From: an uncultured Ruminococcus sp.
GTDB taxonomy: Bacteria > Bacillota > Clostridia > Oscillospirales > Ruminococcaceae
DNA length: 64,000 bases
NCBI GenBank assembly: GCA_900315755.1
Contig: ONAI01000001.1
Coordinates: 46,696 to 110,695 of the forward strand
Direction of reading: 5' to 3'
The notes under the pieces are model-generated. The model ran no database searches. It had not been told where the DNA came from and saw only the letters and a list, made by a program, of their open reading frames with translations. The translations under genes were made by a program, and so were the position numbers. Of this stretch, positions 21,350-58,574 are shown in pieces; position 1 is the stretch's first letter; each line of letters begins with the position of its first letter.

Positions 21350-21632
21350 AATAGTTAAATGCTATGAAGGGAAACAAAGCCTGTCGATGTTTTCACAGAG
21401 AGCTGCCGTATGGTGAAAGGCAGCAGGCTTAAACAGGTCATAACTCATCCCTGAGCAGTCGGCTTAAAGCAGATCCACTGCAAGTAGGCTTGAACGGGCT
21501 CTCCCGTTACAGAGATATGCGTTGGCAGGACGCAGATGAGTGGGCGTTTGATACGTCAAGAAGAGTGGTACCACGGAGTATATCGCAGCTTCGTCTCTTC
21601 CATGCAGGACATGGAGGGGACTTTTTTTATTC
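21350..21632 (+). promoter_or_regulatory. T-box riboswitch, probable leucine specifier
   Basis: The leader has the T-box landmarks: the AGAG bulge and distal-loop region AGAGAGCTGCCGTATGGTG (21398-21416), a probable specifier CTC at 21444-21446 followed by ATCCCTGAG, and the T-box bulge sequence AAGAGTGGTACCACGG (21560-21575) that pairs with the NCCA end of uncharged tRNA. A terminator stem (TCTTCCATG/CATGGAGGGGA) with a T-run follows at about 21592-21630. CTC is a leucine codon and the next gene is leuA, so uncharged tRNA-Leu should switch transcription on. The specifier choice rests on position and gene identity, not on a full fold. Confidence 0.9.
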
Positions 21633-52299: not shown

Positions 52300-52342
52300 A
52301 TTATTATAGATCAACAGAACTATTCCAGAAAGGACTGATAAT

Positions 52343-54454
52343 ATGCTTAAATTCGGAGAATGGGTAGCAAAACACAGATCCCTGATACTTATATTTGGTG
52401 TTCTTATGATGATACCTTCCGCTATCGGCTATATCAACACAAGAGTAAACTACGATATTCTCTCCTACCTTCCAAAAGATATAGACACTATGGTCGGTCA
52501 GGATATTCTCCAGGACGAATTCGGTCAGGGAGGCTTCTCCCTTGTAATGACCGAGGGCATGAGCGATAAGGATGTCGCGAAAACCGCCCGGCGTTTTGAA
52601 GAGATAGACCACGTTTCAAGCGTTGTTTGCTACCAGTCGCTAACAGACTGTCAGATCCCTAAAGAGATACTCCCAAGCAATATCGAGGAATTCTTCACTA
52701 AGGACGATACCACGATGATGGCAGTATTCTTCGATGAAGGTACTTCCGCCGACGGAACTCTCGCAGCTGTCGAAGAAATGAGAAAAATCACCGATGAACA
52801 GTGCTTCATCAGCGGTATGTCTGCAATAACACTTGATATGAAGAACCTTTCCAAGAGTGAATCCGTTATCTACGCTGTAATAGCCGTTCTCCTCACAAGT
52901 CTTGTACTTATACTTACAATGGATTCATTCCTGATACCGCTCTTCTTCATGCTCAGCATAGGCTTTGCAGTTGTATGGAATCTTGGAACGAATTTCGTTC
53001 TCGGTGAAATATCCTTCCTCACACAGGCGCTCGCACTTGTACTCCAACTCGGCGTTACAATGGACTATTCAATATTCCTCTGGCACAGCTACAAGGAACA
53101 GCTTCTTATATACCCCGATGATAAGCAGGAAGCTATGGCTCATGCGATAGCAAACACAGTAGTGTCAGTAGTCAGCAGTTCATTCACAACAGTTGCAGGA
53201 TTTCTTGCAATGTGCTTCATGAGCTTCACACTTGGTCTTGACCTCGGCATAGTAATGGCAAAGGGCGTTGTATGCGGCGTTATAGCGTGTGTAACAATTC
53301 TCCCGGCGATGATACTCATATTCGATAAAGCGATTGCAAAGACCTCCCACAGAGAATTCCTTCCTAACTTCAAAAAGACTTCATCATTCATAGTTAAGAA
53401 TTCAGCGGCATTCCTCATGATAGGCATAGCATTGCTGATACCTGCTGTTTACGGCAACGGTCACTATGATGTATACTATAAACTTGACAGCACTCTCCCT
53501 TCTTCACTCGAAAGTGTCACAGCCAATGAGAAGCTTTCAAACGACTTCAACATGAACAGCACCCACATCCTTCTTGCAGACACAAATCTCGATGCAAAAA
53601 CAGAATCCAAAATGCTCAAGGAAATGGACAAAGTTGACGGCGTTCAGTTTACATTAGGCTTCAACTCACTTGCAGGACCTGCTATCCCGGAAGAGGTCAT
53701 CCCCGAAGATCTCCGCTCAAAGCTTAAAGGTGATGAATATCAGCTTATACTTATCGGTTCTGAGTATGAAGTAGCTTCCGATAAGGTAAACGAACAGGTA
53801 GGAGCACTGAACAAGATAGCTGCAAAATACGACGACAAGGCAATGCTCATAGGCGAAGCCCCTGCAACAAAAGACCTCATCAATATCACTGACAAGGACT
53901 TCAATGTTGTAAGTCTGCTTTCGATAGCAGTTATTTTCCTGATAATCGCTCTGACATTCAAATCAATATCACTGCCTGTCATACTTGTATCCGTTATCGA
54001 ACTTGCGATCATGGTAAATCTTGGTCTGGCATACTTCACAAACACAGAACTCCCCTTCATCGCATCAGTGGTAATCGGTACTATACAGCTTGGCGCAACA
54101 GTTGATTACGCTATCCTCATGACAACAAGATACCGCAAGGAAAGATACAGCGGTAAAGATAAAAAAGAATCCATAAGCATAGCACTCGAAACATCAATAA
54201 AGTCGGTCATCACATCAGCGCTCGGCTTCTTCGCAGCTACAATAGGCGTTGCACTCTATTCCGACATCGGTATGATCTCTTCACTTTGTATGCTTCTTGC
54301 AAGAGGCGCAATGATCTCAATGGTGATCGTAATAACAATGCTTCCTTCGATGTTTATGCTGCTCGACGGCGTAATCTGCCGCACGAGTTCAGGTTTTCGA
54401 CCTGAAAAGGAAAATTACAGCAATTATAATAAGGCACAGTTCAGATCCGCTTGA
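52343..54454 (+). CDS. MMPL/RND-family membrane transporter
   Basis: 703 residues with two repeated halves, each with one span, a large external loop, then a block of five spans. In the first half the block begins SVIYAVIAVLLTSLVLILTM and includes LQLGVTMDYSIFLWHSYKEQ. The second half mirrors it with IQLGATVDYAILMTTRYRKE. The GxTxDYxI motif places the conserved Asp of the proton relay in each half. MMPL proteins export lipids, lipopeptides or hydrophobic drugs. AAAGGAC precedes the ATG. It is transcribed with the next gene, 31 bp away, and controlled by the divergent TetR regulator. The substrate is unknown. Confidence 0.93.
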   Translation: MLKFGEWVAKHRSLILIFGVLMMIPSAIGYINTRVNYDILSYLPKDIDTMVGQDILQDEFGQGGFSLVMTEGMSDKDVAKTARRFEEIDHVSSVVCYQSLTDCQIPKEILPSNIEEFFTKDDTTMMAVFFDEGTSADGTLAAVEEMRKITDEQCFISGMSAITLDMKNLSKSESVIYAVIAVLLTSLVLILTMDSFLIPLFFMLSIGFAVVWNLGTNFVLGEISFLTQALALVLQLGVTMDYSIFLWHSYKEQLLIYPDDKQEAMAHAIANTVVSVVSSSFTTVAGFLAMCFMSFTLGLDLGIVMAKGVVCGVIACVTILPAMILIFDKAIAKTSHREFLPNFKKTSSFIVKNSAAFLMIGIALLIPAVYGNGHYDVYYKLDSTLPSSLESVTANEKLSNDFNMNSTHILLADTNLDAKTESKMLKEMDKVDGVQFTLGFNSLAGPAIPEEVIPEDLRSKLKGDEYQLILIGSEYEVASDKVNEQVGALNKIAAKYDDKAMLIGEAPATKDLINITDKDFNVVSLLSIAVIFLIIALTFKSISLPVILVSVIELAIMVNLGLAYFTNTELPFIASVVIGTIQLGATVDYAILMTTRYRKERYSGKDKKESISIALETSIKSVITSALGFFAATIGVALYSDIGMISSLCMLLARGAMISMVIVITMLPSMFMLLDGVICRTSSGFRPEKENYSNYNKAQFRSA

Positions 54455-54485
54455 ATACAGAGAAAACAGTAAAGGAGTAATAAGT

Positions 54486-57014
54486 ATGAAAAATTATAAG
54501 AAATTCATCGCCGGTGCAGTTGCAATCGCTATATCAGCAGGTACAACAACTACTATCGCTTTTGCAAAGAACAGTGATAACAACGATAATGCTTCAGAAA
54601 GTTCAGCTTCTTCGCAGAAGTCTGAAAATACTAACACAAGAGCTCCGAAAGACAGTTCAGCCTATAAGGACGAAACAGTATATGTTCTCTGCGAAAGCAA
54701 TTCAAAAGTAAAGAATGTCATTGTAAGCGATTGGCTCAAAAACTCGCCTTCACTTGATTCTATCAAGGATATTTCATCCCTTGCCGACATCGTAAACATC
54801 AAGGGTGATGAGAAATTCACATCCGACGGCACTCAGCTGAACTGGGATGCAGACGGAAAAGACATCTACTACAAGGGCACTTCTTCAAAGGAGCTTCCTG
54901 TTGATGTAAATATCAAATACTACCTCGACGGCAAGGAAATGCAACCGGATTCCCTTATCGGCAAGAGTGGTCACCTCGTCATCCGCTGGGAATACACAAA
55001 CCACGCCAAAGTAACTAAAAATGTAAACGGAAAAGACAGAGAGCTCTATGTTCCGTTCATGTGTGCCAACGCAATGCTTCTCAACTCGGATAAGTTCATG
55101 AATGCCGAAATCTCAAGCGGCAAGATACTTTCTGATGGCAACCGCCTCATTGTTGTAGGTCTTGCCTTCCCGGGACTCAACGAAAGTCTCGGACTCGATG
55201 AGATAGAAGACTTCGACATAGAGATACCTGAATATGTCGAACTCACAGCAGATGTCAAGGATTTTGAAATGGGAACTACCGTAACAGCCGTAAGCAACGA
55301 GGTTTTCTCAAAGCTTGATCTCGACGGCGAATTCAACTACGGCAAGCTAAAAGACGAACTCAAGGAACTCACAGACGGCGCAGATAAGCTCTTAAACGGT
55401 ACTGTTTCGCTCTATGACGGTCTTACTACTCTTTCCGACAAGACCGGCTCTCTCGTTGACGGTGTTGATAAGCTCGCTTCCGGCGCTCTCGAACTTAAAA
55501 ACGGCGGCGAAAAACTCGGCAGCGGCGCTTCCGCACTCTCAAACGGCGCTAAGAAGATAGCAGATTCCACGGCTGCTCTCAGAGACGGCATACAGTCCGC
55601 AAAGGACGGCTCAGCTTCACTTGTTGACGGTATCGCTAAACTCGATGACGGCTCGGCTGCACTCGTAAGCGGTGCCGAACAGTTAAGTGCCGGCGCTGAA
55701 ACTCTCAGCGAAGGTCTCGGCAGCGCAAAGGACGGCTCAGCTGCCCTCGTTGACGGTATTGCACAGCTTGACAACGGCTCAGACGAACTCGTGAGCGGCG
55801 CAGCACAGCTTACAGGCGGCGCAGATAAACTCACAGCAGGTAGTTCCGCAGTCAAGGAAGGCTCGGAACAGCTCGCAGACGGAACTCAGCAGCTTGCAGA
55901 CGGTGCTTCACAGCTCAGCGATTCAGCCAAGCAGCTTTCAGCAGGTATAGCTTCCGCAAAGGACGGTTCAGCTGCACTCGCAGCCGGCGCAAGCAACCTT
56001 TCGGCAGGTCTCGACACTGTGGGTACAACTCTCAGCGCTACGATCACAAATAATGAAAATGCGCTCGCCGCTCTCCAGCAGCTTTATGCACAAAACCCTT
56101 CGACCGAACTCGCAACCGCTATCCAGACTCTCCAGCAGACAATAGCAGTGCAGAAAGCGCTCGCTGAAAATATGACATCTGACGGCAATATCGCAGCCGG
56201 TGCAAACGCACTCAAGCAAAGTGCAGAAGCCCTCAACAGCGGTCTGACTACACTCGATAACGGCGGAAAAGCGCTTTCAGCCGGTGCCGAAAAGCTTTCA
56301 ACCTCAACAGACCTCATAAACGGCGGTGCTCAAAAGCTTTCAAAGGGTACAGCCGATCTTGATAACGGAATCACAACTCTCACCGCAGGCGGATCAAAGC
56401 TCTCAGACGGCATCAACGCTCTTGCAGCCGGTATCGACAGACTTGCAGCCGGTGCCGGTGAACTCGATGGAGGTCTCGGAAAGCTCACAGCCGGCGCTCT
56501 TGACCTCAACAAAGGTCTCGCACAGCTGAAAACAGGTGCCGTAACACTTGATGACGGCGTGGACCAGCTGGGCAATGGTGCAAATGCTCTTGACGGAGGT
56601 CTTTCACAGCTTCTCAGCGGCAGTTCTCAGCTTGCTGACGGTACATCAACTCTTGCAGCTTCTTCAAATGAACTTGCAGCCGGCGCACTCAAGCTTGCAG
56701 AAGGCTCAGTTCAGCTCTGGAACGGCGCAAACGCACTCAAGGACGGCTGCGGTGCTCTCACCAGCGGAATAACCCAGCTCAAGAACGGTTCAGAGGAGCT
56801 CAAGAACGGCATGGCAAAATTCAACGATGAAGGCGTATCAAGGATCGCAGCTGCATTTGATAAAAAGCTTCCTGAATTTGTGAACAACTTCAAGGCTGTC
56901 AGAGACGTTTCCAGAGAGTACACAAGCTTCTCAGGCATCTCGGACAATATGGACGGCAGTGTAAAGTTCATATACGTATTTGACGGTGCTAAACCGGCAG
57001 ACAACGACAAATAA
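54486..57014 (+). CDS. Secreted YhgE/Pip-like heptad-repeat protein
   Basis: 842 residues. A signal peptide (about 1-27) precedes a Ser-rich linker, then a globular region (about 55-290). A very long repeat region (about 300-800) follows, built of seven-residue units of the type DGAxxLx (LADGTQQLADGASQLSD). Larger blocks of 42 residues also recur, starting SAKDGSASLVDG and SAKDGSAALVDG. These repeats are those of YhgE/Pip and of proteins paired with MMPL exporters; they predict a long rod-like coiled coil reaching into the wall. Unlike YhgE/Pip, it has no C-terminal membrane block; it ends SVKFIYVFDGAKPADNDK. It probably forms a periplasm-like conduit or tether for the MMPL partner. Confidence 0.8.
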   Translation: MKNYKKFIAGAVAIAISAGTTTTIAFAKNSDNNDNASESSASSQKSENTNTRAPKDSSAYKDETVYVLCESNSKVKNVIVSDWLKNSPSLDSIKDISSLADIVNIKGDEKFTSDGTQLNWDADGKDIYYKGTSSKELPVDVNIKYYLDGKEMQPDSLIGKSGHLVIRWEYTNHAKVTKNVNGKDRELYVPFMCANAMLLNSDKFMNAEISSGKILSDGNRLIVVGLAFPGLNESLGLDEIEDFDIEIPEYVELTADVKDFEMGTTVTAVSNEVFSKLDLDGEFNYGKLKDELKELTDGADKLLNGTVSLYDGLTTLSDKTGSLVDGVDKLASGALELKNGGEKLGSGASALSNGAKKIADSTAALRDGIQSAKDGSASLVDGIAKLDDGSAALVSGAEQLSAGAETLSEGLGSAKDGSAALVDGIAQLDNGSDELVSGAAQLTGGADKLTAGSSAVKEGSEQLADGTQQLADGASQLSDSAKQLSAGIASAKDGSAALAAGASNLSAGLDTVGTTLSATITNNENALAALQQLYAQNPSTELATAIQTLQQTIAVQKALAENMTSDGNIAAGANALKQSAEALNSGLTTLDNGGKALSAGAEKLSTSTDLINGGAQKLSKGTADLDNGITTLTAGGSKLSDGINALAAGIDRLAAGAGELDGGLGKLTAGALDLNKGLAQLKTGAVTLDDGVDQLGNGANALDGGLSQLLSGSSQLADGTSTLAASSNELAAGALKLAEGSVQLWNGANALKDGCGALTSGITQLKNGSEELKNGMAKFNDEGVSRIAAAFDKKLPEFVNNFKAVRDVSREYTSFSGISDNMDGSVKFIYVFDGAKPADNDK

Positions 57015-57027
57015 TGACTTTTGGTCA
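57015..57027. promoter_or_regulatory. Fourth copy of the TetR-type operator
   Basis: TGACTTTTGGTCA begins at the first base after the stop of the 842-residue gene and matches TGACYNNNRGTCA. It is 74 bp upstream of the -35 of small RNA 1. It can also fold as a short hairpin, but there is no U-tract. Confidence 0.55.
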
Positions 57028-57100
57028 TCACGCTTATAGCGCGATATATAGCTAAAAAGTAGATATATAAGATTTTTATATCGAAATAACATATATATAT

Positions 57101-57129
57101 TTGATTTTTGCAGTAAGAGGTGCTACAAT
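57101..57129 (+). promoter_or_regulatory. Sigma-A promoter of small RNA 1
   Basis: TTGATT at 57101 and TACAAT at 57124 with a 17-base spacer. The sequence from -40 to the start closely resembles the promoter of the second unit. Confidence 0.75.
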
Positions 57130-57135
57130 ATAGTC

Positions 57136-57226
57136 AAAGGACAAATGCTGCTTGTCTTTTATAATGATTTTTTCAATTCCATCCTTTAAAAAGAGTGAGT
57201 AGTCATATGGCTACTCACTCTTTTTT
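57136..57226 (+). ncRNA. Small RNA 1 of a tandem pair (about 90 nt)
   Basis: The predicted transcript starts near 57136. It opens with a hairpin in which AAGGACAA pairs with TTGTCTTT around the loop ATGCTGC. An A/U-rich linker containing TTCCATCCTTT follows. A terminator closes it: GAGTGAGTAG (57193-57202) with CTACTCACTC (57211-57220), loop TCATATGG, then six T residues. No open reading frame of note is inside. Its linker is complementary to AAAGGATGGAA, a ribosome-site-like sequence, so pairing with mRNA start regions is possible. I do not recognise a known RNA family. Confidence 0.75.
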
Positions 57227-57424
57227 GTGTTAATATTTTTCGCGTACATAATTTGTTCAAAAACTCCATGAAAAAATGCTCAAAACTGAGATGTAAACCG
57301 TCTATCATTTTTGTATTTAATTAACCAATAACCAAAAATAAAGATTGGCATTTTTCAAAAATCACGTAATATCGCGTTTTTTGTGGCATATAAAATACAT
57401 ATATCATTAATTGTGATTATATAT

Positions 57425-57453
57425 TTGCATTTTTGTAGAATTAGTGCTATAAT
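57425..57453 (+). promoter_or_regulatory. Sigma-A promoter of small RNA 2
   Basis: TTGCAT at 57425 and TATAAT at 57448 with a 17-base spacer. The -10 is closer to consensus than that of unit 1. Confidence 0.75.
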
Positions 57454-57459
57454 ATACTC

Positions 57460-57552
57460 GAAGGACAAATGCTGCTTGTCTTTTATAATGATTTTTTCAA
57501 TTCCATCCTTTAAAAAAGAGTGAGTAGTCTTACGGCTACTCACTCTTTTTTT
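57460..57552 (+). ncRNA. Small RNA 2 of a tandem pair (about 92 nt)
   Basis: From 57461 it matches unit 1 base for base for more than 50 bases, including the 5' hairpin and linker. It then differs by one extra A and by the terminator loop (TCTTACGG instead of TCATATGG); both terminator arms are identical (57518-57527 and 57536-57545). The conserved stems with a changed loop argue for selection on structure. Unit spacing is 324 bp; the 200 bp between units is AT-rich and shows nothing else. Its terminator overlaps the last codons and stop of the convergent LysR gene. Confidence 0.78.
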
Positions 57553-58487
57553 ATATCCTCATCAATTCTGTTTGCAAACCAAGTTATAGTTTTGATGCAT
57601 TCCTGTATGAGCGGATCATTCTCACTGCTCTTTCGGAACACTATAATATCTCTGTTGAGATTCTTTGCATATGAACACTTTCTGACCACAAGCTTTAACG
57701 GGGCAAGTACACTTGCCGGCACAGGTGTTACCCACATATACGCACCTATGACAGTCGAAAGCATACTGATCTGAGTTCCACGGTCGTAGATATAGATCTT
57801 TCTGCCGCTCGTTTCTATATGAAGCTCCTGGTTGATAGAAGCCCTTCTGAGCATTTCCGGTTCATCGTCGCCGTGAATCACTTCAGGATAGTCTTTAAGG
57901 AGCTCAACCGGAACGTCGTCATATTTAGCAAGTGGATGATCTTCCCTCATCATAAGGGCAAGCTGATACTCCATAATTGTTTTGGAGACAAGATTCTTAT
58001 TTTTGATACGTTCATTGAGCATATCAAGATAACTTACAGGAGTTCTCAGAACACCTATATCGAATTTTCCCGCACATACGTCCTCAAGGGCTTTAGGCGT
58101 GTTTGTTTCAAGAAGGTGAACAGTGAGGTTGCTTCCTGCGGCAATTTTGGAATTGTTTATCAGATGACCGATAGAAGCCGCCGAATAAGGCGAACGTGCC
58201 ATTGCAACTTTAAGGGTAGTATTATTGCCGGCGTGTTCTTTGTAATCATTTTCAAGCGAATGCACTTCATCAACGATGTTTCTTGCCCTTGCAAGAAAAG
58301 CCTCTCCCTCAGGAGTGAGTATCATACCGTTAGGCGTTCTGATAAAGATCTGTATGCCTATATTTTCTTCAAGCTCTTTCAGTGCAATGCTTATGTTCGG
58401 CTGTGCCTGATAAAGCTTTTTTGCAGCTCTGGTAACGCTGCCTTCCTGAGCGATCGCAATAACATATTCAAGATGCTGTAATTTCAT
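57540..58487 (-). CDS. LysR-family transcriptional regulator
   Basis: 315 residues. The N-terminal winged HTH reads MKLQHLEYVIAIAQEGSVTR, then AAKKLYQAQPNISIALKELE. The C-terminal periplasmic-binding-like domain (about 90-300) would bind a small effector. ATG 58487 follows GGAAGG. Its stop lies inside the terminator hairpin of small RNA 2. The gene lies 87 bp after the XRE regulator on the same strand. The target is not evident. Confidence 0.93.
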   Translation of the reverse strand: MKLQHLEYVIAIAQEGSVTRAAKKLYQAQPNISIALKELEENIGIQIFIRTPNGMILTPEGEAFLARARNIVDEVHSLENDYKEHAGNNTTLKVAMARSPYSAASIGHLINNSKIAAGSNLTVHLLETNTPKALEDVCAGKFDIGVLRTPVSYLDMLNERIKNKNLVSKTIMEYQLALMMREDHPLAKYDDVPVELLKDYPEVIHGDDEPEMLRRASINQELHIETSGRKIYIYDRGTQISMLSTVIGAYMWVTPVPASVLAPLKLVVRKCSYAKNLNRDIIVFRKSSENDPLIQECIKTITWFANRIDEDIKKE

Positions 58488-58574
58488 CTTACAATTCCTT
58501 CCTTTATGTTGACATAAAATATCAAAAAACTCTTTTCAAAAATCTCCAAAGATGCTATAATATAATATAGCTGC

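What the first reader, a model, noticed from the sequence alone, without database searches (positions are those of the whole stretch)
57092..57552. Two near-identical small RNA genes in tandem, each with promoter and terminator
Seen: two units 324 bp apart are identical over more than 50 bases, each preceded by a sigma-A promoter with a 17-base spacer and closed by the same 10-bp terminator stem. The terminator loops differ while both arms are kept, and the 5' hairpin is unchanged. Inference: a duplicated small RNA family under structural selection. The unpaired TTCCATCCTTT linker is complementary to a ribosome-site-like AAAGGATGGAA, so base-pairing control of translation is plausible. No known family came to mind.
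Basis: partly seen in the sequence, partly recalled or inferred. Interest (0 to 1): 0.8.

Follow-up and report, generated by a model that had tools for sequence, protein, structure and literature searches.

The report
Conserved Ruminococcus small RNA family
Two side-by-side genes here very probably make a small regulatory RNA; the same kind of RNA, not in the RNA family library searched, occurs in many related gut bacteria, is inherited together with one regulator gene, and probably works by pairing with the start regions of messenger RNAs.

Summary
In detail: two promoter-hairpin-linker-terminator units, 324 bp apart, share 56 identical bases. They belong to an sRNA family without an Rfam 15 match. 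A covariance model finds it in 57 of 125 genomes of the genus, 53 of which I count as firm; beyond the genus an order sample gave two weak hits. In 44 of the 53 the sRNA converges on one lysR gene, and firm sRNAs occur in 44 of 58 lysR-positive and 0 of 42 lysR-negative genomes. The 51-nt body is identical in eight copies from four genomes although lysR fourfold sites differ at 44 of 72. The 5' hairpin is not conserved across the family; promoter, an unpaired anti-Shine-Dalgarno/anti-AUG core and a terminator are. In five genomes the lysR leader holds 11-14 exactly complementary nt, including four of five genomes with sRNA and lysR unlinked; in the window 14 of 15 bases pair at the lysR ribosome-binding site. 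Best reading: a trans-acting RNA that blocks translation initiation, analogous to streptococcal csRNAs but not a member, with lysR mRNA a target in some species. Transcription and pairing are unproven; wider target enrichment was not significant.

The parts
57101..57129 (+). promoter of copy 1: TTGATT, 17-nt spacer, TACAAT, TG before the -10
   Evidence: same promoter type in family members
57136..57226 (+). sRNA copy 1 (inferred transcript; 5' end estimated from the -10)
57136..57160 (+). 5' hairpin of copy 1, 9 bp
57168..57188 (+). core of copy 1, TTTTTTCAATTCCATCCTTTA, the proposed pairing region
57188..57226 (+). terminator hairpin and T tract of copy 1
57425..57453 (+). promoter of copy 2: TTGCAT, 17-nt spacer, TATAAT, TG before the -10
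   Evidence: sequence; one search prints it one base shifted
57460..57551 (+). sRNA copy 2 (inferred transcript)
57460..57484 (+). 5' hairpin of copy 2, 9 bp
57492..57512 (+). core of copy 2, the same 21 bases as in copy 1
57512..57551 (+). terminator of copy 2; by sequence it could also end the convergent lysR transcript
57540..58487 (-). lysR: LysR-type regulator gene, convergent with the sRNAs
   Evidence: co-occurrence
58492..58506 (-). lysR mRNA ribosome-binding region, complementary to the sRNA core at 14 of 15 bases

Best explanation
The two units are paralogous genes of a family of trans-acting small RNAs (roughly 80-180 nt) of the genus Ruminococcus. Each has an extended -10 promoter with a conserved A/T-rich upstream region, a variable 5' hairpin in most subtypes, an unpaired core (UUYCAUCC(CC)UUUAU) that mirrors a compact Shine-Dalgarno/start-codon region, and an intrinsic terminator. 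The RNA most likely pairs with translation initiation regions of mRNAs, possibly helped by Hfq, and represses them; the mRNA of the co-inherited, usually convergent lysR gene is a target in at least some species. Shown by computation: the family and its spread, sequence-level constraint, co-occurrence with lysR, complementarity to lysR leaders in a subset of species. Inferred: transcription, pairing in the cell, repression, use of Hfq, other targets, and any control of the sRNA promoter by LysR.
For: 57 of 125 genus genomes hit. 51-nt body identical in 8 copies from 4 genomes while lysR fourfold sites differ 44 of 72; subtype B identical over 80 nt in 12 of 13 genomes. Own promoter and terminator, with no downstream gene on the same strand before lysR. 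Firm sRNA in 44 of 58 lysR-positive and 0 of 42 lysR-negative genomes. Exact complements in lysR leaders: 14 nt G032, 14 G120, 13 G082, 12 G033, 11 G100; combined p 1.7e-4, or 5.9e-4 taking the worst member per core. Permutation over 20 cores p 0.010. Four of five unlinked genomes have 11 nt or more, 1 of 37 others, p 2.2e-4. Window lysR start ranks 2 of 47. An Hfq gene in 9 of 9 genomes.
Against: No transcript evidence. lysR leaders of subtypes B, C, E and most of D show no special pairing; G028, unlinked, has only 7 nt. In the window the longest exact run is 7 nt (p 0.36 against gene starts); 0 of 300 shuffles reached its duplex energy for G000, but 5 of 300 for the near-twin G123. Gene-start enrichment of other targets is not significant, p 0.24; subtype B gave 2 exact matches beyond the sRNAs in 10 genomes. 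Co-occurrence and pairing tests are not corrected for descent. In G100 and G120 part of the core is paired in the folded model.
Confidence: 0.7

Rival explanations
1. The RNA is a general anti-Shine-Dalgarno mimic or a decoy for a protein (ribosome, Hfq or another RNA-binding protein), without specific mRNA targets.
For: The core resembles an anti-SD; no clear targets in subtypes B, C and E. Constraint over the whole body, hairpin loop included, is wider than a seed needs. Several subtypes also carry C-rich terminator loops.
Against: Cognate complementarity in lysR leaders reaches well beyond the SD (13-14 nt) and changes with the core (G032 against G082).
Confidence: 0.12
2. The unit serves only in cis, as a shared bidirectional terminator or transcriptional-interference element for the convergent lysR gene; the RNA itself does nothing.
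For: 44 of 53 firm genomes have it converging on lysR; the copy-2 terminator overlaps the lysR stop codon.
Against: The body is frozen while the terminators vary. The unit persists away from lysR in G082, G100, G033, G120 and G028, and on the same strand 0.9 kb downstream in G062 and G097.
Confidence: 0.07
3. It is the mRNA of a tiny peptide (MLLVFYNDFFNSIL in subtype A), for example a type I toxin-like gene.
For: AAAGGA lies three bases before an ATG with 14 codons; hydrophobic product, tandem copies.
Against: G082 has lost that ATG and G100 has an extra base that shifts the frame, with the core intact. Subtypes C, D and E have no ATG before the core. No synonymous change among 8 copies.
Confidence: 0.05
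4. The shared sequence is a DNA-binding site (such as a LysR operator) present in both the lysR leader and the sRNA gene, not an RNA-pairing element.
For: It occurs in both places in opposite orientation; LysR proteins often bind their own control region (general knowledge).
Against: It lies downstream of the promoter, in the transcribed and mostly unpaired core, and is kept where the lysR leader lacks it.
Confidence: 0.04

Closest known systems
csRNAs of Streptococcus (CiaRH regulon)
   Same: Two stem-loops flanking an unpaired region complementary to SD and AUG; CAU as anti-AUG in 53 of 61, anti-GUG/UUG in the rest; several near-identical copies per genome (PMC3091779 and PMC4507080, passages only). 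Here, of 20 distinct cores, 17 have CAU next to the C run, 2 have CAC and 1 (G089) has UAU.
   Different: No CiaR-type repeat at these promoters; constant partner is a lysR gene; usually one copy per genome. No sequence relation was tested.
LhrC1-5 of Listeria
   Same: Multicopy sRNAs of 111-114 nt with C-rich stretches that pair with SD regions; one target is bound upstream of the SD (PMC6794450, passages only).
   Different: LhrC uses three UCCC motifs; here a single CAUCC(CC)UUU core. No Rfam family reached its threshold.
GcvB/GcvA (and OxyS/OxyR, recalled)
   Same: An sRNA gene next to the gene of a LysR-type regulator (PMC1557403, passages only).
   Different: There the sRNA is divergent and activated by the regulator; here it is convergent, regulation by LysR is untested, and the regulator mRNA is a predicted target.

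Membership tests
streptococcal csRNA | CiaR-dependent promoter with TTTAAG-N5-TTTAAG (motif recalled) | tested here: not met
   no match with up to 2 mismatches near 57000-57600; nearest at 52335 and 59437
streptococcal csRNA | unpaired region complementary to SD and start codon between two stem-loops | tested here: met
   for the window type; subtype E lacks the 5' stem-loop
streptococcal csRNA | post-transcriptional repression of targets | not testable with these tools
   needs an experiment
Rfam L20_leader (RF00558) | score at the gathering threshold | tested here: not met
   29.2 and 27.0 bits against 58.7
Rfam L20_leader (RF00558) | ribosomal protein genes downstream | tested here: not met
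   the next gene is the convergent lysR
LhrC | Rfam-level sequence and structure match | tested here: not met
   no gathering-level hit in the window or in 10 member loci; that Rfam holds an LhrC family is recalled
sRNA controlled by an adjacent LysR-type regulator (GcvB, OxyS) | regulator gene next to the sRNA gene | tested here: met
   44 of 53 firm genomes, convergent
sRNA controlled by an adjacent LysR-type regulator (GcvB, OxyS) | regulator binds and activates the sRNA promoter | not testable with these tools
   a conserved A/T-rich element lies upstream of the -35; binding unknown
trans-acting base-pairing sRNA | complementarity to targets beyond chance | tested here: inconclusive
   significant for lysR leaders of a subset; not for further targets

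The most novel reading that the evidence does not exclude
A genus-wide regulator-RNA module: an almost invariant anti-start-codon sRNA and a LysR regulator are co-inherited as one feedback pair. The sRNA blocks translation of the regulator and of a set of exported proteins, LysR controls the sRNA promoter, and the pair stays coupled after the two genes separate in the genome, with stronger complementarity in most separated species.
Probability: 0.22. Interest if true: 0.78.

Novelty: new member of a known kind. Interest (0 to 1): 0.6.

Why it matters
Ruminococcus species are important fibre degraders of rumen and gut (general knowledge), and the paper listings seen here show no sRNA family described in them (2 of 2, 15 of 37 and 1 of 1 papers listed). 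A sequence frozen over 51-80 nt while the neighbouring gene differs at about half or more of its sampled fourfold sites points to an important regulatory job, and the co-inherited regulator gives a first testable target. The same anti-SD/anti-AUG design as in streptococci would be a case of convergence if no common origin is found.

Tried and rejected
Peptide or toxin reading: rejected. L20 leader: rejected. Recent neutral duplication: rejected. Cis leader of a downstream gene: rejected, since each unit ends in a terminator and the next gene is convergent.

Exported-protein targets: exact complements AAAGGATGAAAW number 100 in 16 genomes with D/F-type cores (own sRNAs included; backward control 14) against 38 in 21 genomes with other cores or no sRNA, and some lie on start codons of signal-peptide genes. 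But coding hits are also commoner there (44 in 16 genomes against 25 in 21), and the excess at non-coding or start positions (40 against 13) is not significant, p 0.24. Kept as a lead only. Subtype B complement with 1 mismatch: 75 hits in 10 genomes, 10 of them the sRNAs, against 45 for the backward control; exact hits beyond the sRNAs: 2. Promoter element elsewhere: uninformative, because the spacing in my pattern missed nearly all sRNA promoters themselves. My first Fisher test of unlinked against linked genomes (4 of 4, p 5e-5) had left out G028; with it the result is 4 of 5, p 2.2e-4.

Rows dropped before counts: one search failed to delimit the terminator of 4 of 40 units and mis-set that of L080; A2 used 26 of the 40 units, four of them trimmed by hand (L062, L069, L070, L080). 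Searches took 45 of the 58 lysR loci; 42 had an sRNA, and G070 was left out for an incomplete lysR start (41 used); G028 was not among them; of 100 hits 92 were fetched (the other 8 are the sRNAs themselves), 2 rows were dropped as repeats of an identical context (L239, L269), 6 were set aside as the sRNA; L194, also the sRNA, and perhaps L248 remained under 'other', and the lysR leader of G032 (L243) was classed as coding. The weak hits G084, G114, G128, G130, G174 and G201 were not counted as firm. One search scored only 10 candidates per genome and missed G028, so absence outside the genus is not proven.

Full report
OBSERVATION. The window holds two head-to-tail units at 57094-57226 and 57418-57551, spaced 324 bp, 87% identical over 99 nt, with 56 identical bases in a row. 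Copy 1 has TTGATT-17-TACAAT preceded by TG; copy 2 reads TTGCAT-17-TATAAT. Both fold as a 9-bp 5' hairpin, a mostly open linker and a 17-18-bp terminator, z -6.4 and -7.4; the 52-nt body alone is not unusually stable (z -1.25). Rfam gives no gathering-level match at this place; at permissive thresholds the best hit is L20_leader, 29.2 bits against 58.7.

NEIGHBOURHOOD. Upstream lie an MMPL transporter gene (52343-54454) and a heptad-repeat protein gene (54486-57014); downstream and convergent lies a LysR-type regulator gene (57540-58487, minus) that reaches no curated NCBIfam cut-off among the 25 of 51 families shown. The copy-2 terminator overlaps the lysR stop codon.

FAMILY. A DNA search in 60 relatives gave short hits; three of them (L009, L010, L012) proved to have the same promoter, core and terminator and to face the same lysR gene. 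A lysR protein search found homologues at E<=1e-60 in 58 of 100 genus genomes; the 3' flanks of these 58 loci hold the unit in 36 (one further pattern hit, L091, is not a unit). An alignment of 26 units gave model R1, which hits 57 of 125 genus genomes at E<=0.01, one place each except pairs in G000, G123, G095 and G104, and two other genomes, weakly, in a 295-genome order sample. I count 53 of the 57 as firm, leaving out G084, G114, G128 and G130, whose cores do not match; G028 is kept for its clear core. Of the 53, 44 have the sRNA converging on lysR (36, 8 of the 19 stretches); G062 and G097 have it about 0.9 kb downstream on the same strand; G082, G100, G033, G120 and G028 have it elsewhere; G139 shows no lysR in its 6-kb stretch; G010 has it at a contig end. 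In G082 and G100 it still follows relatives of the window's upstream genes. The exact subtype-A 50-mer occurs in three named records, two Ruminococcus flavefaciens MAGs and one uncultured Ruminococcus sp., two copies each. None of 10 member loci has a gathering-level Rfam match.

CONSTRAINT. The tandem pair also exists in G095 and G104, whose LysR is 59% identical to the window's. All eight bodies in four genomes are identical over 51 nt; lysR fourfold sites differ at 44 of 72, and the spacer between copies aligns hardly better than shuffled sequence (0.52 against a mean of 0.48, maximum 0.54, of 50 shuffles). In subtype B 80 nt are identical in 12 of 13 genomes, with lysR fourfold differences of 50 of 114 to 69 of 105 in four sampled pairs. 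Between subtypes the 5' part differs; what stays is promoter, core and a terminator with two-sided changes in 8 of 10 stem pairs. Eight folded members: a 5' hairpin in most, none in subtype E; the core is mostly open but partly paired in G100 and G120. A/T-rich positions about 20 and 10 bp upstream of ATATTTG are conserved in 29 non-redundant members; ATATTTG itself was my search anchor, so its perfect score is built in.

NOT A PEPTIDE. Subtype A could encode MLLVFYNDFFNSIL, but G082 has lost the ATG and G100 is frame-shifted while the core is intact, and subtypes C, D and E have no ATG before the core.

MECHANISM. The core is the complement of a compact AAAGG-AUG region. Streptococcal csRNAs share this design, with CAU as anti-AUG in 53 of 61 and anti-GUG or anti-UUG in the rest (PMC3091779, passages; PMC4507080, passages). 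Here, of 20 distinct cores, 17 have CAU beside the C run, 2 CAC and 1 UAU. Hfq is encoded in 9 of 9 genomes tested.

TARGET lysR. Exact complementary runs between core and lysR leader of the same genome: 14 nt G032, 14 G120, 13 G082, 12 G033, 11 G100, 10 or fewer in the other 36 of 41. In G082 the 11-mer AAAGGATGGAA occurs only at the sRNA and in the lysR leader. In the window 14 of 15 bases pair at the lysR ribosome-binding region, -19.3 kcal/mol, 0 of 300 shuffles as strong, but 5 of 300 in the near-twin G123; it ranks second of 47 gene starts in the window, yet the longest exact run is 7 nt (p 0.36). Permutation over 20 distinct cores: cognate mean -14.8 against -13.5, p 0.010. Combined exact-run test: p 1.7e-4 (median per core) or 5.9e-4 (maximum per core); its 298 background gene starts include loci fetched for a related motif, which should make it conservative. 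Of five unlinked genomes four have 11 nt or more, against 1 of 37 others, p 2.2e-4. Against: subtypes B, C, E, most of D, and G028 show nothing special. Firm sRNA is present in 44 of 58 lysR-positive and 0 of 42 lysR-negative genomes; none of these tests is corrected for descent.

OTHER TARGETS. Complements of the D/F core are abundant in D/F genomes and some sit on start regions shared by several species, but relative to coding hits the excess is not significant, p 0.24. Subtype B gave no convincing targets.

VERDICT. A real sRNA family, without an Rfam match and not seen in the paper listings, of a known mechanistic kind. Targeting of lysR is likely in some species; expression, pairing and the rest of the regulon are open.

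Noticed in passing
window 21355-21601 (+): A T-box leader, 103.7 bits, the only gathering-level Rfam match in the window.
   Followed up: no
L170, L228, L272; L178, L234, L237, L268: In D-type genomes the same genes recur with an exact core complement at the start region: a protein starting MTELEIGQEVELEFGGKA (3 genomes) and an exported protein starting MKLL or MKLI (4 genomes).
   Followed up: partly
L042-L054, L060-L062, L065-L069, L073, L077, L080: Several subtypes carry a C-rich terminator loop (CCTCCCCCC, CTTCCCC or TTTCCCC, GTCCCCC), a possible second pairing site.
   Followed up: no
L126 3315-3502, L130 2889-3073: G120 and G139 have a much longer 5' domain with a G-rich arm (CAAAGGGG...CCCCTTTG) before the usual core.
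   Followed up: no
L248 about 1200: G032 has another place that reads, on the other strand, like core plus a hairpin (TTTTTTCATCCTTTATAAAAGCAGTC...GACTGC); model R1 did not hit it.
   Followed up: partly
window 52343-57014 (+): MMPL transporter and heptad-repeat protein genes before the sRNAs; relatives also precede the unlinked sRNAs of G082 and G100.
   Followed up: partly
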